A stretch of 64,000 nt of DNA, from the NCBI RefSeq assembly GCF_002252475.1, contig NZ_NNRK01000035.1:124001-188000 (forward strand), given 5' to 3'. This stretch comes from Brucella rhizosphaerae. GTDB taxonomy: Bacteria > Pseudomonadota > Alphaproteobacteria > Rhizobiales > Rhizobiaceae. Below the pieces are notes generated by a model that saw only the letters and a program-made list of their open reading frames with translations, did no database searches and was not told the origin of the DNA. The translations under genes were made by a program, and so were the position numbers. Of this stretch, positions 55,679 through 62,342 are shown in pieces. Numbering within the stretch: the first letter of the stretch is position 1; each line of letters starts with the position of its first letter.

Positions 55679-56245
55679 ATGCCGGACCGATGCCGTGAAA
55701 TTTGCGCTTTTCGAATGAGTTTCGATCTGATGTGGAATCTGCAACGCCTTTTCCAGAACCATGCGCGGGAATTGAACCGCTTTTTCCGGCGCAGGGGACA
55801 CAATGCAGAAACAGCTGCTGATCTTACGCAGGACACGTTTGTCCGTGTGATGTCTGCATCCTCCTCTGGTTCATCCGGGCAATCGGGCAAAGATAACAAT
55901 CCTCGTGCCTATCTCCATCAGGTGGCTCGCAATCTTTCAATTGATCTTTATCGTCGTGAGCGTGTTGTCGAATATGTAAACATGCCGGATGAAGAATGGC
56001 GCCGCATTGCCGATGTGACGCCAACGCCAGAGACGATCGTCTATGACAGGCAGCGCCTTATGATTATTGAGAAAGCTCTTCTTGAGCTGCCCGAACAGAC
56101 CCGTCGGGCCTTTGAACTCCATCGCCTCGATGAAAAGACGATTGCCCAGGTGGCGGGAGAATTGGGCCTGTCTGTATCCCGGACCTGGACGCTCATCAAA
56201 CGAGGCTACGTGCATTTGAGAGCCTGCTTGAATGAAGATGTATAG
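55679..56245 (+). CDS. fecI: FecI-type ECF sigma factor
   Basis: A 188-residue extracytoplasmic-function sigma factor. Region 2 is at residues ~20-90 ('LFQNHARELNRFFRRRGHNAETAADLTQDTFVRVM' then 'NPRAYLHQVARNLSIDLYRRER'), and region 4 at ~120-180 ('LLELPEQTRRAFELHRLDEKTIAQVAGELGLSVSRTWTLIKRGYVHLRACL'). This is the FecI/iron-starvation group. It should direct RNA polymerase to the receptor promoter in response to ligand binding, through FecR. Start may be 55679 or the ATG at 55715. A candidate IRO box lies upstream, so iron would control the amount of sigma factor. Confidence 0.9.
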   Translation: MPDRCREICAFRMSFDLMWNLQRLFQNHARELNRFFRRRGHNAETAADLTQDTFVRVMSASSSGSSGQSGKDNNPRAYLHQVARNLSIDLYRRERVVEYVNMPDEEWRRIADVTPTPETIVYDRQRLMIIEKALLELPEQTRRAFELHRLDEKTIAQVAGELGLSVSRTWTLIKRGYVHLRACLNEDV

Positions 56246-56423: not shown

Positions 56424-57377
56424 ATGGATGACAAACTGTCGAAAAGCGAAAAGCTGTTCGAGGAGGCTCTGGATATTGTCATCCGCATTCAGGATGACCC
56501 GGACAATCCGGTCGCGCACGATCTTGTCAACCGCTGGCGCGCACGCGGTCCCGAACATGAAGTAGCGTGGCGCGAGGCTATGGAGATCTACGGCATGGCC
56601 GGTAAAGTCATGCAGGATCAACGCCGTGCGAGCCGTGGCCCCAAGATGTCGCGACGCTCGATTTTGACAGGCGGGGCAGCGGGACTCGCCGTTGTTGCAA
56701 GCGGAGCGCTTTTCGGGCCGCAGCTCATATTGCAGGCGCAAGCCGACTATATGACGGCTTCTGCTCAATTACAGGACGTTTCACTCTCTGACGGCAGCAA
56801 GGTAACGCTTGGCCCTGATAGCGCGATCCGCCTGAAGTTCGATGCAAGTGCCCGCCGTGTCGAGCTTCTTTCAGGGATGGCATTTTTCGACGTTAAGCCT
56901 GATTCTGCGCGCCCTTTCAGCGTTGAAACTGGTAATCTGGTAGCGACAGCTTTGGGAACGGCCTTCGATGTGAGCAGTGATGCGGGCTATCTCACGGTTT
57001 CGGTGAACCATGGGCTGGTTGCAGTCAGGCCAACCGGTACGCGCGATACGCTGACACCGCTTGGCGAGGGAGACTGGCTCACTTTCAATGGACAGAACCA
57101 CGATTTTGAACGTGGCAATCGCGATATATCGCAGATCGCCGCATGGCGTCAGGGTATCATTATTGCTGAACGCGATACCATTTCTTCTGTTGTGGCACGC
57201 ATTGCGCGCTGGCAGTCGGGCCGAGTGCTTCTCGCTCAACCGGGTTTCGGAGCGCAAAGGATCAGTGGCGTTTTTGATCTTAATAACCCTGTCTCCGCGC
57301 TTGAGGCGGTTGTCGAGCCCTATGGAGGAAAGGTCCGCCAGATTTCACCTTGGCTGACTGTCATTTCATCGATTTGA
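56424..57377 (+). CDS. fecR: FecR-type transmembrane sigma regulator
   Basis: A 317-residue protein. The cytosolic ~75 residues carry the DUF4880-like opening with conserved Trp ('LVNRWRARGPEHEVAWREA'). One transmembrane segment follows at ~80-100, preceded by 'MSRRSILTGGAAG', a twin-arginine-like motif. The periplasmic FecR domain has 'LSDGSKVTLGPDSAIRLKFDASARRVELLSGMAFFDVKPDSARPFSVETGN' and the C-terminal secretin-like part that contacts the receptor. It holds or activates the sigma factor according to the receptor state. It lies 178 bp after fecI. Confidence 0.9.
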   Translation: MDDKLSKSEKLFEEALDIVIRIQDDPDNPVAHDLVNRWRARGPEHEVAWREAMEIYGMAGKVMQDQRRASRGPKMSRRSILTGGAAGLAVVASGALFGPQLILQAQADYMTASAQLQDVSLSDGSKVTLGPDSAIRLKFDASARRVELLSGMAFFDVKPDSARPFSVETGNLVATALGTAFDVSSDAGYLTVSVNHGLVAVRPTGTRDTLTPLGEGDWLTFNGQNHDFERGNRDISQIAAWRQGIIIAERDTISSVVARIARWQSGRVLLAQPGFGAQRISGVFDLNNPVSALEAVVEPYGGKVRQISPWLTVISSI

Positions 57378-57511: not shown

Positions 57512-60500
57512 ATGGGGCTTCGTGTCGGTAATAGTGTTGTGCGGCGGCTGGGAATGCGAGTTTTGACGGCCACGCTTTTGGGGTCGACATGCATTTATGC
57601 CTTATCCCTTTCTGTAACGGCAAACGCTCAGGCGCAGGCTCAACGGCAGGTTTCGTTCAATATTCCTGCGGGTTCGCTCTCTGCGGCGCTGGCAAGTTTT
57701 GGTCGTCAGGCCGGTATGCAGGTCACTTATCAGCCGCAAATTGCCGCTTCCAGGCAGGCACCGGCTGTATCAGGAAGCATGTCACCGCAAGATGCTTTGT
57801 CACGCGTCCTGTCCGGGTCGAGCCTTTCCTATCGTTTCACCGGGAGCAATACGGTCGCTCTTTCCGAACGGTCGGCAGCAGTGCAAGCCCCTCTGGCAGC
57901 CGACGGTACGACTTTGCTTGATACGATCACCGTCACGGGTGGAAGCGGTGCGGTCGCAGCCGATGCTCCATATTACACCGCCGCACCGACATCTTATATT
58001 GCATCTGAAACCATCGAACGTTTTCGCGGCTCAAGCCCGGCTGATATTTTCCGGGGCACACCGGGTGTGATGTCCGGCGAAGCGCGTAATGGTGCGGGTT
58101 CCGTAGACGTCAACATTCGCGGTATGCAGGGCATGGGTCGTGTTGCAACTACCATCGATGGCGCGGAAAACAGCGTGACGGTCTATCAGGGTTATCAGGG
58201 ACTTTCCAACCGCACTTATATCGATCCTGATCTGATCGCAGGCATCGATATCAACAAGGGGTCGGATGCATCATCGCGCGGTATCGCAGGCAACGTCGCT
58301 ATCCGAACCCTTGATGCTGACGATATCGTTAAGGAAGGCGATAGTTGGGGAATGCGTGTGAAGGGTGAGTACGGATCAAATTCCTCCTCGCCTCATGCGG
58401 GTGCCAAAGGTGGATATGCATGGCCGTATTCGCCGAGCAATGTTCCGGAGGTGGTTGGGTCGCCAGACGGAATGGATCGACCGTCGTTCCTCACCCCGAC
58501 CAACGGTTCTGCCAGTGTTGTTGCTGCGATAAAGGAAGAGAACTACGACATCTTCGCGGGCTATGCCTACCGCAAGCGCGGCAATTATCACGCAGGCAAA
58601 CATGGCCCTGCAGCAAATCCAGTGAATATCGGTCCTGCCACGACCTGTAATTCGTCCGGTTCCTGGTGCCAGAACTGGCCCGAATATATCGAAAATGGCG
58701 GACTTACGAATTATCGTGCAGGCGAAGAAATTCTCAATACGCAGCTTGAAACAAAATCCTTCCTGACAAAAGCGACGCTTCGTTTTGATGGCGGTCACAC
58801 GCTGAAACTTGGCTATACGGGTTTCCGTGGCGAGGCTGGCGATTTGTTGGCATCCCGCTTTACAGGGGACCGCTCTCAGCCGGTGCAGCAGGACCTTACG
58901 TCCGGCACGAAGCTCGATACAGGCACCATGCGTTATTATTGGAACCCTGATGACAATGAGCTCATCGATCTGAAGGCCAATCTCTGGGTAACGAAGCTGG
59001 AACTGCGTAATCCGCGGCGCGGCAACATGATACCGACATCGGAGTCGCTCGGTCTTTCGCCAGATTTCCGCACGGGATCGAATACGATTATGTGGGGCGG
59101 AGATGTTAACAATAAATCCAAGTTCTCGTTTGGGGATTATGGTGATCTCGATCTGAATTACGGCGTCTCTTATATCAGGGAGGATACACGTCCGAGCAAC
59201 TATACCAACGAGCTTGAAGGCTGGCTTAATCTGCGCGATGCCTATCGCGATGAACTTGGTATCTTCACCAAGGCAGCCTATAAGCCAGTGGACTGGCTGA
59301 CACTGAATGCCGGCCTGCGCTATTCGCATTATTGGTCGCATGACCGGCGCACAGAGGCCAATAGTGACGCACAGATCAATACCGAACCAAACCGTGATTC
59401 AGGTGGCTTCAGCCCATCGATTGGCGTCACGGTCGAGCCGTTCGATGGCAGTCAGCTTTATGTGAACTATTCCAATGCGCTGCGGTATCCGAGCCTGTTT
59501 GAATCTGTGTCGGCATTCACCATCATTCCGAATACCAGCTTGCAGCCGGAACGCTCCAGCAATTGGGAAGTGGGTGCCAACTTCACCAAGGATGGTCTGC
59601 TCAATGATGACGACCGAGGCATGGTTAAGTTCGGTTACTTCAACTGGGACGTCAAAGATTATGTGGCGCGCGCATTCCGCGATTTCTACGACGATGGCGG
59701 TAATTTTTCCTTCTCCGGTATGCAGGTCTACAATATCGACCGTGCACGCTTCTCAGGCCTTGAATTCTCAAGCCGCTATGAGGCCGGTGGATTTACCGCT
59801 GATTTCGCGGCAAACTATTATCTCGATGTAGAGTTTTGCCGCACATCCGACACATGCGGAAACAAGTCGCTCTATGGTGATTATGCCACCAATCAGGTAC
59901 CGCCAAAATATACGGTCGATCTTACCGTTTCCCAGAAAATGCTGGAAGACAGACTGACCCTTGGTGGCCGCGTTTCCTATGTTGGTCCACGTGCTATCGG
60001 TCATGGCGATGTCACGGCAGTCGGTGCAAGTGAGTTCATTTCGCAGACGCGCTGGAAGCCTTACACGCTGATCGATGTGTTTGCTGAATATAAGATCAAT
60101 AACAGTCTGACAGCGACGGCTCGCATCGAAAATCTGACGGATCAGTATTATGTTGATCCGCTGGGTCTGGTGAACCAGCCGGGACCGGGCCGCACTTTCT
60201 ATGCAGGGCTTACGAGCAATTTCGGTGGCGATCAGCGTTTGCCGCAGCTTTCGCCATTTTCGCGCTCGCAAGGCGGCGCGCCGGGCATCGACTGGACTGG
60301 CTTCTATGGCGGTGTTCACGCTGGTATGACATCCGGGCGTACATGGGGAACCACGACGGCATTTGACGGCACGGCTGATCCGATTTCTGGTAGTGAATCT
60401 GCGGATCGTGGCTTTGGAAACTCAGCGCTTTTCGGTGTACAGGCTGGCTATAATTATCAGTTCAACAACCGCGTGGTCATCGGCATCGAAGCTGACGTGA

Positions 60501-61135
60501 GCAAGACCCGTCTGAAGGGCACACAGGCAGCTTATATGCAGGAAGACTGGATCGCTGCACAGCAAGACATTGCCGGTATTCAAGCCAATACCCATTATGA
60601 AATCGACTGGACGGGGTCTATTCGTGGGCGCCTTGGCTATGCGCTCGATAACCGCTGGCTTGTCTACGGCACGGCAGGTGTTGCGTTCGCACATGAAAAG
60701 CAGACCCGCGACCAGTATCGTTATGCGGAAGATATTCTGGGTAAGCCGAACTCGAGCCTGTTTTTTGTCGATAAGCAGTCTGGAACACGGGCAGGCGTTA
60801 CAGTTGGCGGTGGCGTGGAATATGCAATCAACGACCGCTGGTCGGTGAACGCCGATTATACCTACAGCCGCTTCGGCAATCGCAGTTTCAATTTCGAAAA
60901 TGCGCGTGCGGGCACTGGTGGTAACTATACAATCAGAGAGCAGACGGGCGTGGAAGTTACACCGCCTGAACCATTCCTGTGCGAAATTTTGGGAGGTTCC
61001 TTCTGCGAACCAACTGAAACACCCGTCTACAAGTATACGGAGCACACTGGCAGCTCGAATGTCGTAAATGGCCGCAAAGCTTCCAATTCTCTCGACACTC
61101 ATACGGTCAAGCTGGGGCTCAACTTCCACTTCTGA
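57512..61135 (+). CDS. TonB-dependent receptor fused to an Omp25-like barrel
   Basis: A 1207-residue outer-membrane protein. A signal peptide ends near residue 42 ('SVTANAQAQ'). The STN signalling domain (about 45-125) has 'FNIPAGSLSAALASFGRQAGMQVTYQP' and 'GSMSPQDALSRVLSGSSLSYRF'. The plug follows ('DINKGSDASSRGIAGNVAIRTL'), then the barrel, whose last strand 'GPGRTFYAGLTSNFG' is near residue 905. After a ~15-residue linker comes a second barrel of ~280 residues that opens 'IDWTGFYGGVHAGM', carries 'GVQAGYNYQFNNRVVIGIEAD' and ends 'HTVKLGLNFHF', as in Omp25/Omp31 proteins. Heme is the likely ligand, since heme oxygenase follows. STN fits control by FecI/FecR. Ordinary receptors lack the second barrel. 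Confidence 0.88.
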   Translation: MGLRVGNSVVRRLGMRVLTATLLGSTCIYALSLSVTANAQAQAQRQVSFNIPAGSLSAALASFGRQAGMQVTYQPQIAASRQAPAVSGSMSPQDALSRVLSGSSLSYRFTGSNTVALSERSAAVQAPLAADGTTLLDTITVTGGSGAVAADAPYYTAAPTSYIASETIERFRGSSPADIFRGTPGVMSGEARNGAGSVDVNIRGMQGMGRVATTIDGAENSVTVYQGYQGLSNRTYIDPDLIAGIDINKGSDASSRGIAGNVAIRTLDADDIVKEGDSWGMRVKGEYGSNSSSPHAGAKGGYAWPYSPSNVPEVVGSPDGMDRPSFLTPTNGSASVVAAIKEENYDIFAGYAYRKRGNYHAGKHGPAANPVNIGPATTCNSSGSWCQNWPEYIENGGLTNYRAGEEILNTQLETKSFLTKATLRFDGGHTLKLGYTGFRGEAGDLLASRFTGDRSQPVQQDLTSGTKLDTGTMRYYWNPDDNELIDLKANLWVTKLELRNPRRGNMIPTSESLGLSPDFRTGSNTIMWGGDVNNKSKFSFGDYGDLDLNYGVSYIREDTRPSNYTNELEGWLNLRDAYRDELGIFTKAAYKPVDWLTLNAGLRYSHYWSHDRRTEANSDAQINTEPNRDSGGFSPSIGVTVEPFDGSQLYVNYSNALRYPSLFESVSAFTIIPNTSLQPERSSNWEVGANFTKDGLLNDDDRGMVKFGYFNWDVKDYVARAFRDFYDDGGNFSFSGMQVYNIDRARFSGLEFSSRYEAGGFTADFAANYYLDVEFCRTSDTCGNKSLYGDYATNQVPPKYTVDLTVSQKMLEDRLTLGGRVSYVGPRAIGHGDVTAVGASEFISQTRWKPYTLIDVFAEYKINNSLTATARIENLTDQYYVDPLGLVNQPGPGRTFYAGLTSNFGGDQRLPQLSPFSRSQGGAPGIDWTGFYGGVHAGMTSGRTWGTTTAFDGTADPISGSESADRGFGNSALFGVQAGYNYQFNNRVVIGIEADVSKTRLKGTQAAYMQEDWIAAQQDIAGIQANTHYEIDWTGSIRGRLGYALDNRWLVYGTAGVAFAHEKQTRDQYRYAEDILGKPNSSLFFVDKQSGTRAGVTVGGGVEYAINDRWSVNADYTYSRFGNRSFNFENARAGTGGNYTIREQTGVEVTPPEPFLCEILGGSFCEPTETPVYKYTEHTGSSNVVNGRKASNSLDTHTVKLGLNFHF

Positions 61136-61282
61136 TTGATTTGAAGTGCGTCATTTTGTGCAAAGGCAGATTTTTTTGCCTTTCCATTGCAAAAAACAGC
61201 TCCCTCAATCGTCTTAGTAATGAGAAAGGCTTGCGTCTGCTGCATATTGGCCAGACCTCGCCTGCCAACAGGGATATACCAC

Positions 61283-61900
61283 ATGACTGACGCCAACGTC
61301 CTTGAGCAACCGATTGCTCTTCCTCGTTCGAAACGCCTGAAGGCGCGCACGACGGGGACGCATGAACGCCTTGATCAGAGCATTATGGCAGGCGATCCAT
61401 TTGCCAGCCGTGAACGTTATGCGTTGTTTGTAGAGGTTCAGTATCAGTTCCATCGCGATATAGATGCACTCTACGATGTTGCGGCGCTCGATGCGTTGCT
61501 GCCGGATTTGCAAGGTCGTCGTCGTTGCGGGCTTGTGGGGCAGGACTTGATTGATCTTGGCGCAGACCTCCCGGCAGCTGACGGTTCTCTTGCTTTTTCA
61601 GCAGGCGAGGATGTCGATCTGCCGACTGCTCTGGGCTGGCTTTATGTCGCTGAAGGCTCCAACCTTGGCGCGGCATTTTTGCTCAAGGAAGCCTTGAAGC
61701 TTGGTTTGTCGGACCAACTTGGCGCCCGTCATCTGGCTGGTGCGCCGGAAGGTCGAGGTTTGCATTGGCGCAGCTTCACCGCAGCTCTCGACGAGATTGA
61801 GCTAACCGATGCGGAAGAGGAGCGTGTTGTTGCGGGGGCGGAAACCGCCTTTCGCCGCGTTCACGAACTGGTGCGGACAATCTTTCATGACCGGCTCTGA
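61283..61900 (+). CDS. Biliverdin-forming heme oxygenase
   Basis: A 205-residue heme oxygenase of the bacterial HemO/BphO group, which opens the heme ring to release iron, CO and biliverdin in the cytosol. The ATG at 61283 fits; an open frame to a TTG at 61187 covers the leader. The likely proximal His is in 'TTGTHERLDQSIM' near residue 25. The distal helix has 'ALGWLYVAEGSNLGAAFLL', with the conserved Gly and Ser residues of the family, near residue 130. It is 147 bp downstream of the double-barrel receptor and reads into the membrane-protein gene. Confidence 0.85.
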   Translation: MTDANVLEQPIALPRSKRLKARTTGTHERLDQSIMAGDPFASRERYALFVEVQYQFHRDIDALYDVAALDALLPDLQGRRRCGLVGQDLIDLGADLPAADGSLAFSAGEDVDLPTALGWLYVAEGSNLGAAFLLKEALKLGLSDQLGARHLAGAPEGRGLHWRSFTAALDEIELTDAEEERVVAGAETAFRRVHELVRTIFHDRL

Positions 61901-61928
61901 TCAGATATCTGCGGGGCGTGAGGCTGCT

Positions 61929-62342
61929 ATGTCCTGTCGCCACGCCACCTATCCCGATGAACGTCAGCGAGCTGGCTATCTCGCACTGGGGCTTTTGTTG
62001 GTTGCTGCGGCCTTGGTCGGCTCACATGTCCGGCTGATGCCTTCAGCCTTGTTTGTCTTCGTTGCGTTGCTTTGTTTTTTGCAGCTCTCATCCAAAGCCC
62101 TGTGCTGGCTGGAGACAAACAGGATCACGCGCCGTCTTATCGATACGTGGCGCAGGCTTGGCACGTGGCCTCGGTTGTTCAGGCTCTACCTGCTCGCTGT
62201 TCCTGCTGTGATCTGTCTGGCAGCGCTGGCATTCGGACCTCGTGCGCTGTGTCTGGAGTTTGTCATCAACGGAATACTGTGTGCGGGCCTGTTGCTCTTT
62301 GTGGGGCCTCAACGCCGTCAGACAAAACACGTGACTAAATAA
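61929..62342 (+). CDS. Small membrane protein of the heme locus
   Basis: A 137-residue protein of unknown family. Three or four hydrophobic helices ('YLALGLLLVAAALVG', 'PSALFVFVALLCFLQLSS', 'LLAVPAVICLAALAF', 'FVINGILCAGLLLFVG') are separated by short basic loops, so it is an inner-membrane protein. The ATG at 61929 has 'gagg' upstream; an ATG at 61887 overlapping the heme oxygenase end is also possible. It lies between heme oxygenase and the Rrf2 gene and is probably cotranscribed with them. Function is unknown. Confidence 0.65.
   Translation: MSCRHATYPDERQRAGYLALGLLLVAAALVGSHVRLMPSALFVFVALLCFLQLSSKALCWLETNRITRRLIDTWRRLGTWPRLFRLYLLAVPAVICLAALAFGPRALCLEFVINGILCAGLLLFVGPQRRQTKHVTK

What the first reader, a model, noticed from the sequence alone, without database searches (positions are those of the whole stretch)
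57512..61135. TonB receptor with a second, Omp25-like beta-barrel in the same chain
The sequence shows STN, plug and receptor barrel ending near residue 905 with a normal last strand, then a short linker and a complete Omp25/Omp31-type barrel of about 280 residues ending in its own C-terminal aromatic strand. Normally each barrel has one BAM signal at the protein C-terminus. A chain with two barrels raises the question of how it is folded, and the extra barrel may bind heme or anchor a neighbour. I do not recall such a protein being described.
Basis: partly seen in the sequence, partly recalled or inferred. Interest (0 to 1): 0.8.

Follow-up and report, generated by a model that had tools for sequence, protein, structure and literature searches.

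The report
Heme receptor fused to second barrel
A bacterial outer-membrane receptor, probably for heme, carries what looks like a second complete membrane barrel on its tail, and relatives with the same design occur in several bacterial groups, so it is real and conserved and poses the question of how one protein chain builds two barrels.

Summary
Window 57512-61135 is one open frame of 1207 residues: STN, plug and a HasR-like TonB-dependent receptor ending at F904, a 23-residue linker, then a barrel of the Omp25/Omp31 type (928-1207). It is not an assembly join: 31 intact fused frames were compared (8 in the window's genus, the others from several families in three orders of Alphaproteobacteria), and selection on linker and tail is purifying. 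Of 43 unfused relatives, 42 end in Phe at the residue aligned with F904, so both parts look complete. Thirty of 31 tails form one clade apart from 55 stand-alone homologues, while the receptors carrying them do not (AU p about 7e-51): the tail was moved between, or repeatedly lost from, related receptors. All 31 tails end in a canonical BAM signal; the receptor's now internal last strand has Leu or Ile for the final Phe in 7 of 31. All 26 fused loci examined have sigma and FecR genes, 5 a heme oxygenase next door. Most likely: a 22+8 two-barrel heme receptor with a tethered accessory barrel, perhaps for ligand capture; that role is inferred. Multi-barrel outer-membrane proteins are a known class, so this is a new variant.

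The parts
57512..61135 (+). two-barrel receptor gene, 1207 aa, single frame
57512..57637 (+). residues 1-42, signal peptide (by inspection)
   Evidence: sequence; no signal-peptide program run
57719..57865 (+). STN signalling domain, residues 70-118
   Evidence: Pfam PF07660
57977..58282 (+). plug, residues 156-257, with the apical motif YxGYxG (Y228 stands where HasR has His at chain position 189)
   Evidence: PF07715
58781..60223 (+). receptor barrel from the Pfam start (residue 424) to its last strand ending at F904
   Evidence: PF00593 424-875; TIGR01785 to 904; unfused relatives end here
60224..60292 (+). linker, residues 905-927, expected in the periplasm
   Evidence: 18-28 residues in 31 of 31 fused proteins; topology inferred
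60293..61132 (+). second barrel, residues 928-1207, Omp25/Omp31-type, eight strands assigned by eye
   Evidence: no structure model
60896..61090 (+). long fourth extracellular loop of the second barrel, residues 1129-1193, with conserved ends ARAG and NGRKASN
61091..61132 (+). last strand of the second barrel, residues 1194-1207, with the BAM signal GLNFHF
   Evidence: G..[FWY].F at the end in 31 of 31 fused tails
55679..56245 (+). ECF sigma factor gene, FecI-like
56424..57377 (+). FecR-type anti-sigma gene
61187..61900 (+). heme oxygenase gene (start codon not settled)
   Evidence: PF01126 E 5.8e-25; no NCBIfam match
61809..62342 (+). DUF454 membrane protein gene (listed start overlaps the gene before; true start probably later)
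   Evidence: PF04304
62351..62863 (+). Rrf2-family regulator gene
   Evidence: PF02082
62860..63717 (+). TonB gene
   Evidence: PF03544

Best explanation
It is a TonB-dependent receptor of the HasR type, probably for heme, whose chain continues into a second, eight-stranded outer-membrane barrel. Shown: one intact frame; a complete receptor plus a complete Omp25-type domain by homology; wide conservation; a tail family met only on these receptors in what was searched; gene context of sigma factor, FecR and, in some loci, heme oxygenase and TonB. Inferred: both barrels span the outer membrane side by side, joined by a periplasmic linker (an even number of strands puts all barrel ends in the periplasm). 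BAM takes the tail first, because it carries the canonical C-terminal signal, and then folds the receptor from an internal strand that no longer needs a terminal Phe. The tail's loops, above all the long fourth loop, lie beside the receptor mouth and act as a tethered accessory surface that catches heme or a heme carrier, or holds the receptor in its working state. Heme is then pulled in by TonB, opened by heme oxygenase, and its arrival signalled through STN, FecR and the sigma factor.
For: Domains. HasR is the best solved relative over STN, plug and barrel. Tail profile against stand-alone Omp25-like barrels: hhalign probability 100, E 1e-43 over tail columns 21-224; with the mixed profile A4 the best solved matches are small barrels, NspA, Opa60 and OmpA. 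Conserved fusion. Position of F904: unfused 42 F and 1 L of 43, fused 24 F, 6 L, 1 I of 31 (Fisher p 0.008, not corrected for relatedness). Signal G..[FWY].F at the tail end 31 of 31; G..[FWY].[FWY] at receptor ends 0 of 74. Thirty of 31 tails in one clade, support 98, on receptors that are not one clade. [NTDVS]GR in the last 32 residues: 29 of 31 fused, 1 of 55 stand-alone. Sigma and FecR genes in 26 of 26 fused loci; heme oxygenase next door in 5 of 26 fused and 7 of 21 unfused. Omp31 of B. suis was reported to bind hemin (passage in PMC9728373).
Against: No structure model (tool off), so strand count, two separate barrels and their placement rest on homology. Neither heme-ligand His of HasR is kept: position 189 is Y228 here (Tyr in 74 of 74), position 603 falls in a gap. 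No His column of the tail is kept in 80% of 22 members; its loops are less alike than its strands (mean pair identity 0.26-0.34 against 0.39-0.58). Heme oxygenase is no more frequent beside fused than unfused receptors. Many relatives do without the tail, so it is not needed for basic uptake. Hemin binding by Omp31 is that of a different, stand-alone protein; the nearest stand-alone relatives in my set are about 33-35% identical to the tail, and that they are Omp31-like is recalled.
Confidence: 0.5

Rival explanations
1. The tail is an assembly or stability aid: it brings a strong C-terminal BAM signal and a quick-folding small barrel that starts or steadies the large receptor, and binds no ligand.
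For: Tail end fits GXX-aromatic-X-aromatic in 31 of 31, receptor ends in 0 of 74; the review PMC13067283 (passages) describes that motif and folding from C- to N-terminus.
Against: Unfused relatives with the same kind of receptor end exist in numbers (43 in the set) and need no tail; the fused tails share a loop-4 signature (29 of 31 against 1 of 55), which a mere folding aid would not need.
Confidence: 0.22
2. The tail is a partner-binding or adhesive surface (as in Opa or Omp25-type proteins) whose link to the receptor is regulatory: it is made only when heme is sensed.
For: Long loops; Opa60 among the solved matches; all 26 fused loci examined sit in sigma/FecR units.
Against: No member of this tail family was met alone: none in 47 loci and none near in score, where at most 5 candidates a genome were scored. 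That points to a task tied to the receptor.
Confidence: 0.13
3. The tail anchors the receptor to peptidoglycan, as Omp25-type barrels do in Hyphomicrobiales.
For: Related barrels are tied to peptidoglycan through N-terminal Ala-Asp motifs by LD-transpeptidases (passages of PMC12729407).
Against: A motif of that kind lies ahead of the barrel in 50 of 55 stand-alone relatives but in 1 of 31 fused linkers, where it is internal anyway (a loose pattern).
Confidence: 0.04
4. Ligand is not heme: a HasR-like receptor that lost both His ligands takes another compound, and the tail serves that.
For: His 189 and 603 of HasR are not kept; 21 of 26 fused loci showed no heme oxygenase next door (phmmer with two seed proteins at E 1e-4, so remote ones could be missed).
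Against: TIGR01785 over cut-off; heme oxygenase beside fused and unfused members in several groups (L055); Tyr is a known heme ligand (recalled).
Confidence: 0.1
5. Assembly join, frameshift or pseudogene.
For: Frame-broken copies exist: one in a congener (L016 and L042, apparently the same species in two collections) and L150 in another family.
Against: 31 intact fused frames from separate genome records, and purifying selection over linker and tail.
Confidence: 0.01

Closest known systems
HasR (TonB-dependent hemophore/heme receptor with STN domain; PDB 3csl, 3ddr, 5c58)
   Same: STN, plug and barrel align in three stretches up to the last strand; sigma and anti-sigma genes beside it (that has loci have them is recalled)
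   Different: both heme-ligand His absent, no HasA gene found in the own genome, and a second barrel follows
Omp25/Omp31 family of Hyphomicrobiales (Omp31, Bartonella Hbp; Pfam OMP_b-brl)
   Same: tail is homologous over about strands 1-7 by hhalign and its last strand aligns too
   Different: not met stand-alone, no N-terminal AAD motif, longer loop 4 with the NGRKASN end
Multi-barrel outer-membrane proteins (Solan et al. 2021; GfcD of E. coli)
   Same: two barrels in one chain
   Different: GfcD is described as 12 plus 13 strands with a periplasmic domain between (PMC11494523, passages); here a TonB receptor is joined to an eight-stranded barrel by a short linker. Whether Solan et al. list such a case could not be checked
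Two-part heme receptors with a separate capture protein (HasA-HasR, HpuA-HpuB; recalled)
   Same: proposed division of labour, capture and transport
   Different: here the proposed capture part is an integral barrel in the same chain; not shown

Membership tests
TonB-dependent receptor | plug and barrel domains in order | tested here: met
   PF07715 and PF00593 over cut-off; 22 strands assumed from the family, not modelled
TonB-dependent transducer (FecA/HasR kind) | N-terminal STN domain with sigma and anti-sigma genes next door | tested here: met
   PF07660; sigma and FecR genes in 26 of 26 fused loci, window included, and in 20 of 21 unfused
TonB heme/hemoglobin receptor (TIGR01785) | score over the curated cut-off | tested here: met
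   353.9 against 316.85 bits
HasR | heme-ligand His at 189 and 603 (positions recalled; a His stands at both when the chain is counted by eye) | tested here: not met
   Y228 and a gap
HasR | partner hemophore HasA encoded in the genome | tested here: not met
   PF06438: none in own genome (where no control rang); one search found it in 2 of 31 genomes, so the search can find it
Omp25/Omp31-type eight-stranded barrel | sequence homology over the whole barrel | tested here: met
   (columns 21-224 of 303; last loop and strand not in that alignment but aligned)
Omp25/Omp31-type eight-stranded barrel | eight closed transmembrane strands | not testable with these tools
   structure prediction off; eight strand-like stretches by eye, mean amphipathic score 2.18 in them against 0.67 elsewhere (segments chosen beforehand; strand 5 weak, some peaks at segment edges outside)
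Multi-barrel outer-membrane protein | two complete barrel domains in one chain | tested here: met
   by homology only

The most novel reading that the evidence does not exclude
The tail is a transferable co-receptor: a small barrel that arose once, is never made alone, and has been handed between lineages of heme receptors, where it catches heme or a heme carrier beside the receptor mouth in the same chain; BAM folds both barrels one after the other from a single chain, using a C-terminal and then an internal signal.
Probability: 0.22. Interest if true: 0.8.

Novelty: new variant of a known kind. Interest (0 to 1): 0.6.

Why it matters
BAM is thought to fold a barrel from its C-terminal signal towards the N-terminus (PMC13067283, passages). 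A chain with two barrels needs a second start at an internal strand or a different order. Here natural pairs exist, the same receptor family with and without the tail, so the requirement for a free C-terminal Phe, the order of folding and the use of an accessory barrel can be compared directly. If the tail catches ligand, it would be a co-receptor built into the receptor chain.

Tried and rejected
Assembly join or frameshift: rejected by separate genomes and dN/dS. Peptidoglycan anchor through the N-terminus: unlikely. A stand-alone copy of the tail: none among the frames of at least 80 aa in 26 fused and 21 unfused loci. In 397 genomes the three fused hits scored 460, 390 and 295 bits and the next best 141; those three sequences were in the profile, so their high scores are by construction, and at most 5 candidates a genome were scored. 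Tail remnant behind L057, whose receptor ends LGGE: none seen in the locus. HasA. More receptors from viral contigs: none. Papers on the same combination: searches listed none; Solan et al. 2021 was not held, and what I remember of its abstract (eight-stranded barrels prevail in the combinations) is recalled. Loop conservation as proof of a binding surface: not upheld, loops vary more than strands.

Rows left out before counts: L016, L042, L150 (frame-broken), L146 (cut by a contig end), duplicates L038-L041 and L048, L135 (another architecture), L087-L089 (copies), and distant receptors L002-L004, L006, L007; other distant receptors fell to a rule that the BLAST match must run from before residue 200 to beyond 890. 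G956:C1:2953467 (fused, 1152 aa) and a further fused frame of 1183 aa in L162 had no locus and are not in the trees. L052 (Shinella) is fused but its tail lies outside the clade; it may be a separate event and was not among the 30 of the AU test. L057 counts as unfused. Stand-alone rows in the tail tree were those with a BLAST match of at least about 140 tail residues and a frame of at most 480 aa. Genome counts are lower bounds, because only the best candidates were scored (2 a genome, 5, up to 19).
Full report
What is there. The stretch 57512-61135 is a single open frame of 1207 residues. Pfam finds STN, plug and TonB receptor barrel, and then OMP_b-brl at 925-1131, all over the gathering scores; NCBIfam places the first part in the TonB heme/hemoglobin receptor family over its cut-off, to residue 904. 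The closest solved protein is HasR, over STN, plug and barrel. The genome shows one such gene, several unfused receptors and stand-alone Omp25-like frames.

It is real and widespread. In the window's genus 8 of 35 genomes have the fused gene intact, one more has it frame-broken, two have only unfused relatives, and 24 have no match at E up to 1e-150. Intact fused genes lie in records titled Brucella pseudogrignonensis and B. pituitosa. In plasmids the fusion appears in Ancylobacter, Pseudochrobactrum, Ketogulonicigenium, Novosphingobium and Shinella, with the four Pfam parts over cut-off in one protein of each. In 397 genomes of the order, 22 have a relative at E up to 1e-90 and three of these carry the fusion, the window's own included (frames checked). 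In 385 genomes of the class, 4 have one and only the window's is fused. In the family of G399, 12 of 198 genomes have a match; of 21 matches 18 are intact fusions, one is broken, one is cut by a contig end and one is unfused. In the family of G225 1 of 8 genomes has a match. Only the best candidates of each genome were scored, so these are lower bounds. Pfam found the four parts in L137, L144, L145, L151, L060 and L068, the STN of L151 and L060 a little under its cut-off. dN/dS against five congeners is between 0 and 0.21 where it could be computed; linker values exist for four of the five, tail values for three.

Two complete parts. Of 43 unfused receptors, 42 end in Phe at the position of F904 and one, L057, ends LGGE, as if a tail had been lost there (inference, no remnant found). 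The tail aligns with stand-alone Omp25-like barrels with hhalign probability 100, and the mixed profile A4 matches the solved small barrels NspA, Opa60 and OmpA (the profile of fused tails alone gives only weak matches, best E 0.0022 to Opa60). Eight strand-like stretches can be assigned by eye. The linker is 18-28 residues in 31 of 31 (which corrects two pattern errors).

A travelling tail. A tree of 74 receptors (31 fused) needs 8 changes between fused and unfused, at least 6 forced by well-supported branches, and holding 30 fused receptors together is rejected (log-likelihood 589 lower, AU p 6.9e-51). Yet 30 of 31 tails form one clade with support 98, apart from 55 stand-alone relatives; L052 is the exception, and the grouping of all 31 has support of only 48. 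Identities agree: L060 has a receptor 54% and a tail 32% like the window's, L144 a receptor 37% and a tail 44%. So either the tail was passed between receptor lineages, or an old fusion lost its tail many times; the trees cannot tell gain from loss. Both trees were quick searches with some long branches.

Signs of the fused state. The last residue of the receptor barrel is F in 24, L in 6 and I in 1 of 31 fused proteins. Tails end in the GXX-aromatic-X-aromatic signal in 31 of 31, receptors, fused or not, in 0 of 74. Tails share a loop-4 end of the type NGRKASN ([NTDVS]GR in 29 of 31 against 1 of 55) and lack the AAD motif found ahead of the barrel in 50 of 55 stand-alone relatives (1 of 31 fused). 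Eight of the 31 are from one genus, so these counts are not independent. Loops as a whole are less conserved than strands.

Context and likely work. All 26 fused loci examined have sigma and FecR genes beside the receptor, as have 20 of 21 unfused ones. A heme oxygenase lies directly downstream in 5 of 26 fused (window, L177, L051, L164, L166; in L162 it is some 6 kb away) and in 7 of 21 unfused loci; TonB, sometimes with ExbB and ExbD, follows in part of both (phmmer with few seeds, so remote relatives may be missed). HasA was not found in the own genome and in 2 of 31 genomes overall, on other contigs or far from the receptor. The His at HasR positions 189 and 603 are not kept; Y228, Tyr in 74 of 74, stands at the first. 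The reading I favour is a heme receptor with a tethered accessory barrel, folded tail first. That heme is the ligand I put at about 0.7; that the tail helps catch it at about 0.35. A hemin-binding precedent exists for Omp31 of B. suis and the Bartonella Hbp proteins (intro passage of PMC9728373), but these are different proteins.

Known or new. Multi-barrel outer-membrane proteins are a published class; I saw this only through passages of citing papers (PMC11494523, PMC8592465, PMC10745669). In the recent BAM review PMC13067283 the terms Solan, two barrels and multiple barrels do not occur. The receptor plus Omp25-type combination was not found in print by the searches made. I class it as a new variant of a known kind.

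Noticed in passing
L135:3520-8403 (Methylocystis bryophila plasmid NZ_CP019949.1): A TonB-dependent siderophore receptor of 1627 aa followed by three OMP_b-brl stretches in the same chain, apparently a separate multi-barrel receptor.
   Followed up: partly
L108:1225-3381, L114:157-2217 (G422, G288): OMP_b-brl barrel fused in front of an OprB carbohydrate porin, frames of 719 and 687 aa; plasmid hits H69, H74 and H75, annotated 'carbohydrate porin', may be alike.
   Followed up: partly
L110:1246-2790 (G271); also G411:C9, G273:C6, G122:C1: Frames of 498-577 aa with two OMP_b-brl-type stretches in tandem (only L110 checked with Pfam).
   Followed up: partly
L057 (G352): Unfused receptor that ends LGGE, like the fused linker start, with L in place of the final F: perhaps a receptor that lost its tail.
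   Followed up: partly
G888 (L160, L161, L162): One genome with at least four fused receptors: three and a further one upstream in tandem in L162.
   Followed up: no
window 61187-62342: The listed heme oxygenase and DUF454 frames overlap by about 90 bases; start codons need checking.
   Followed up: no
L199 (G888:C4) and L200 (G111:C5): HasA-family matches over the cut-off in two genomes that also have these receptors, not next to them.
   Followed up: no
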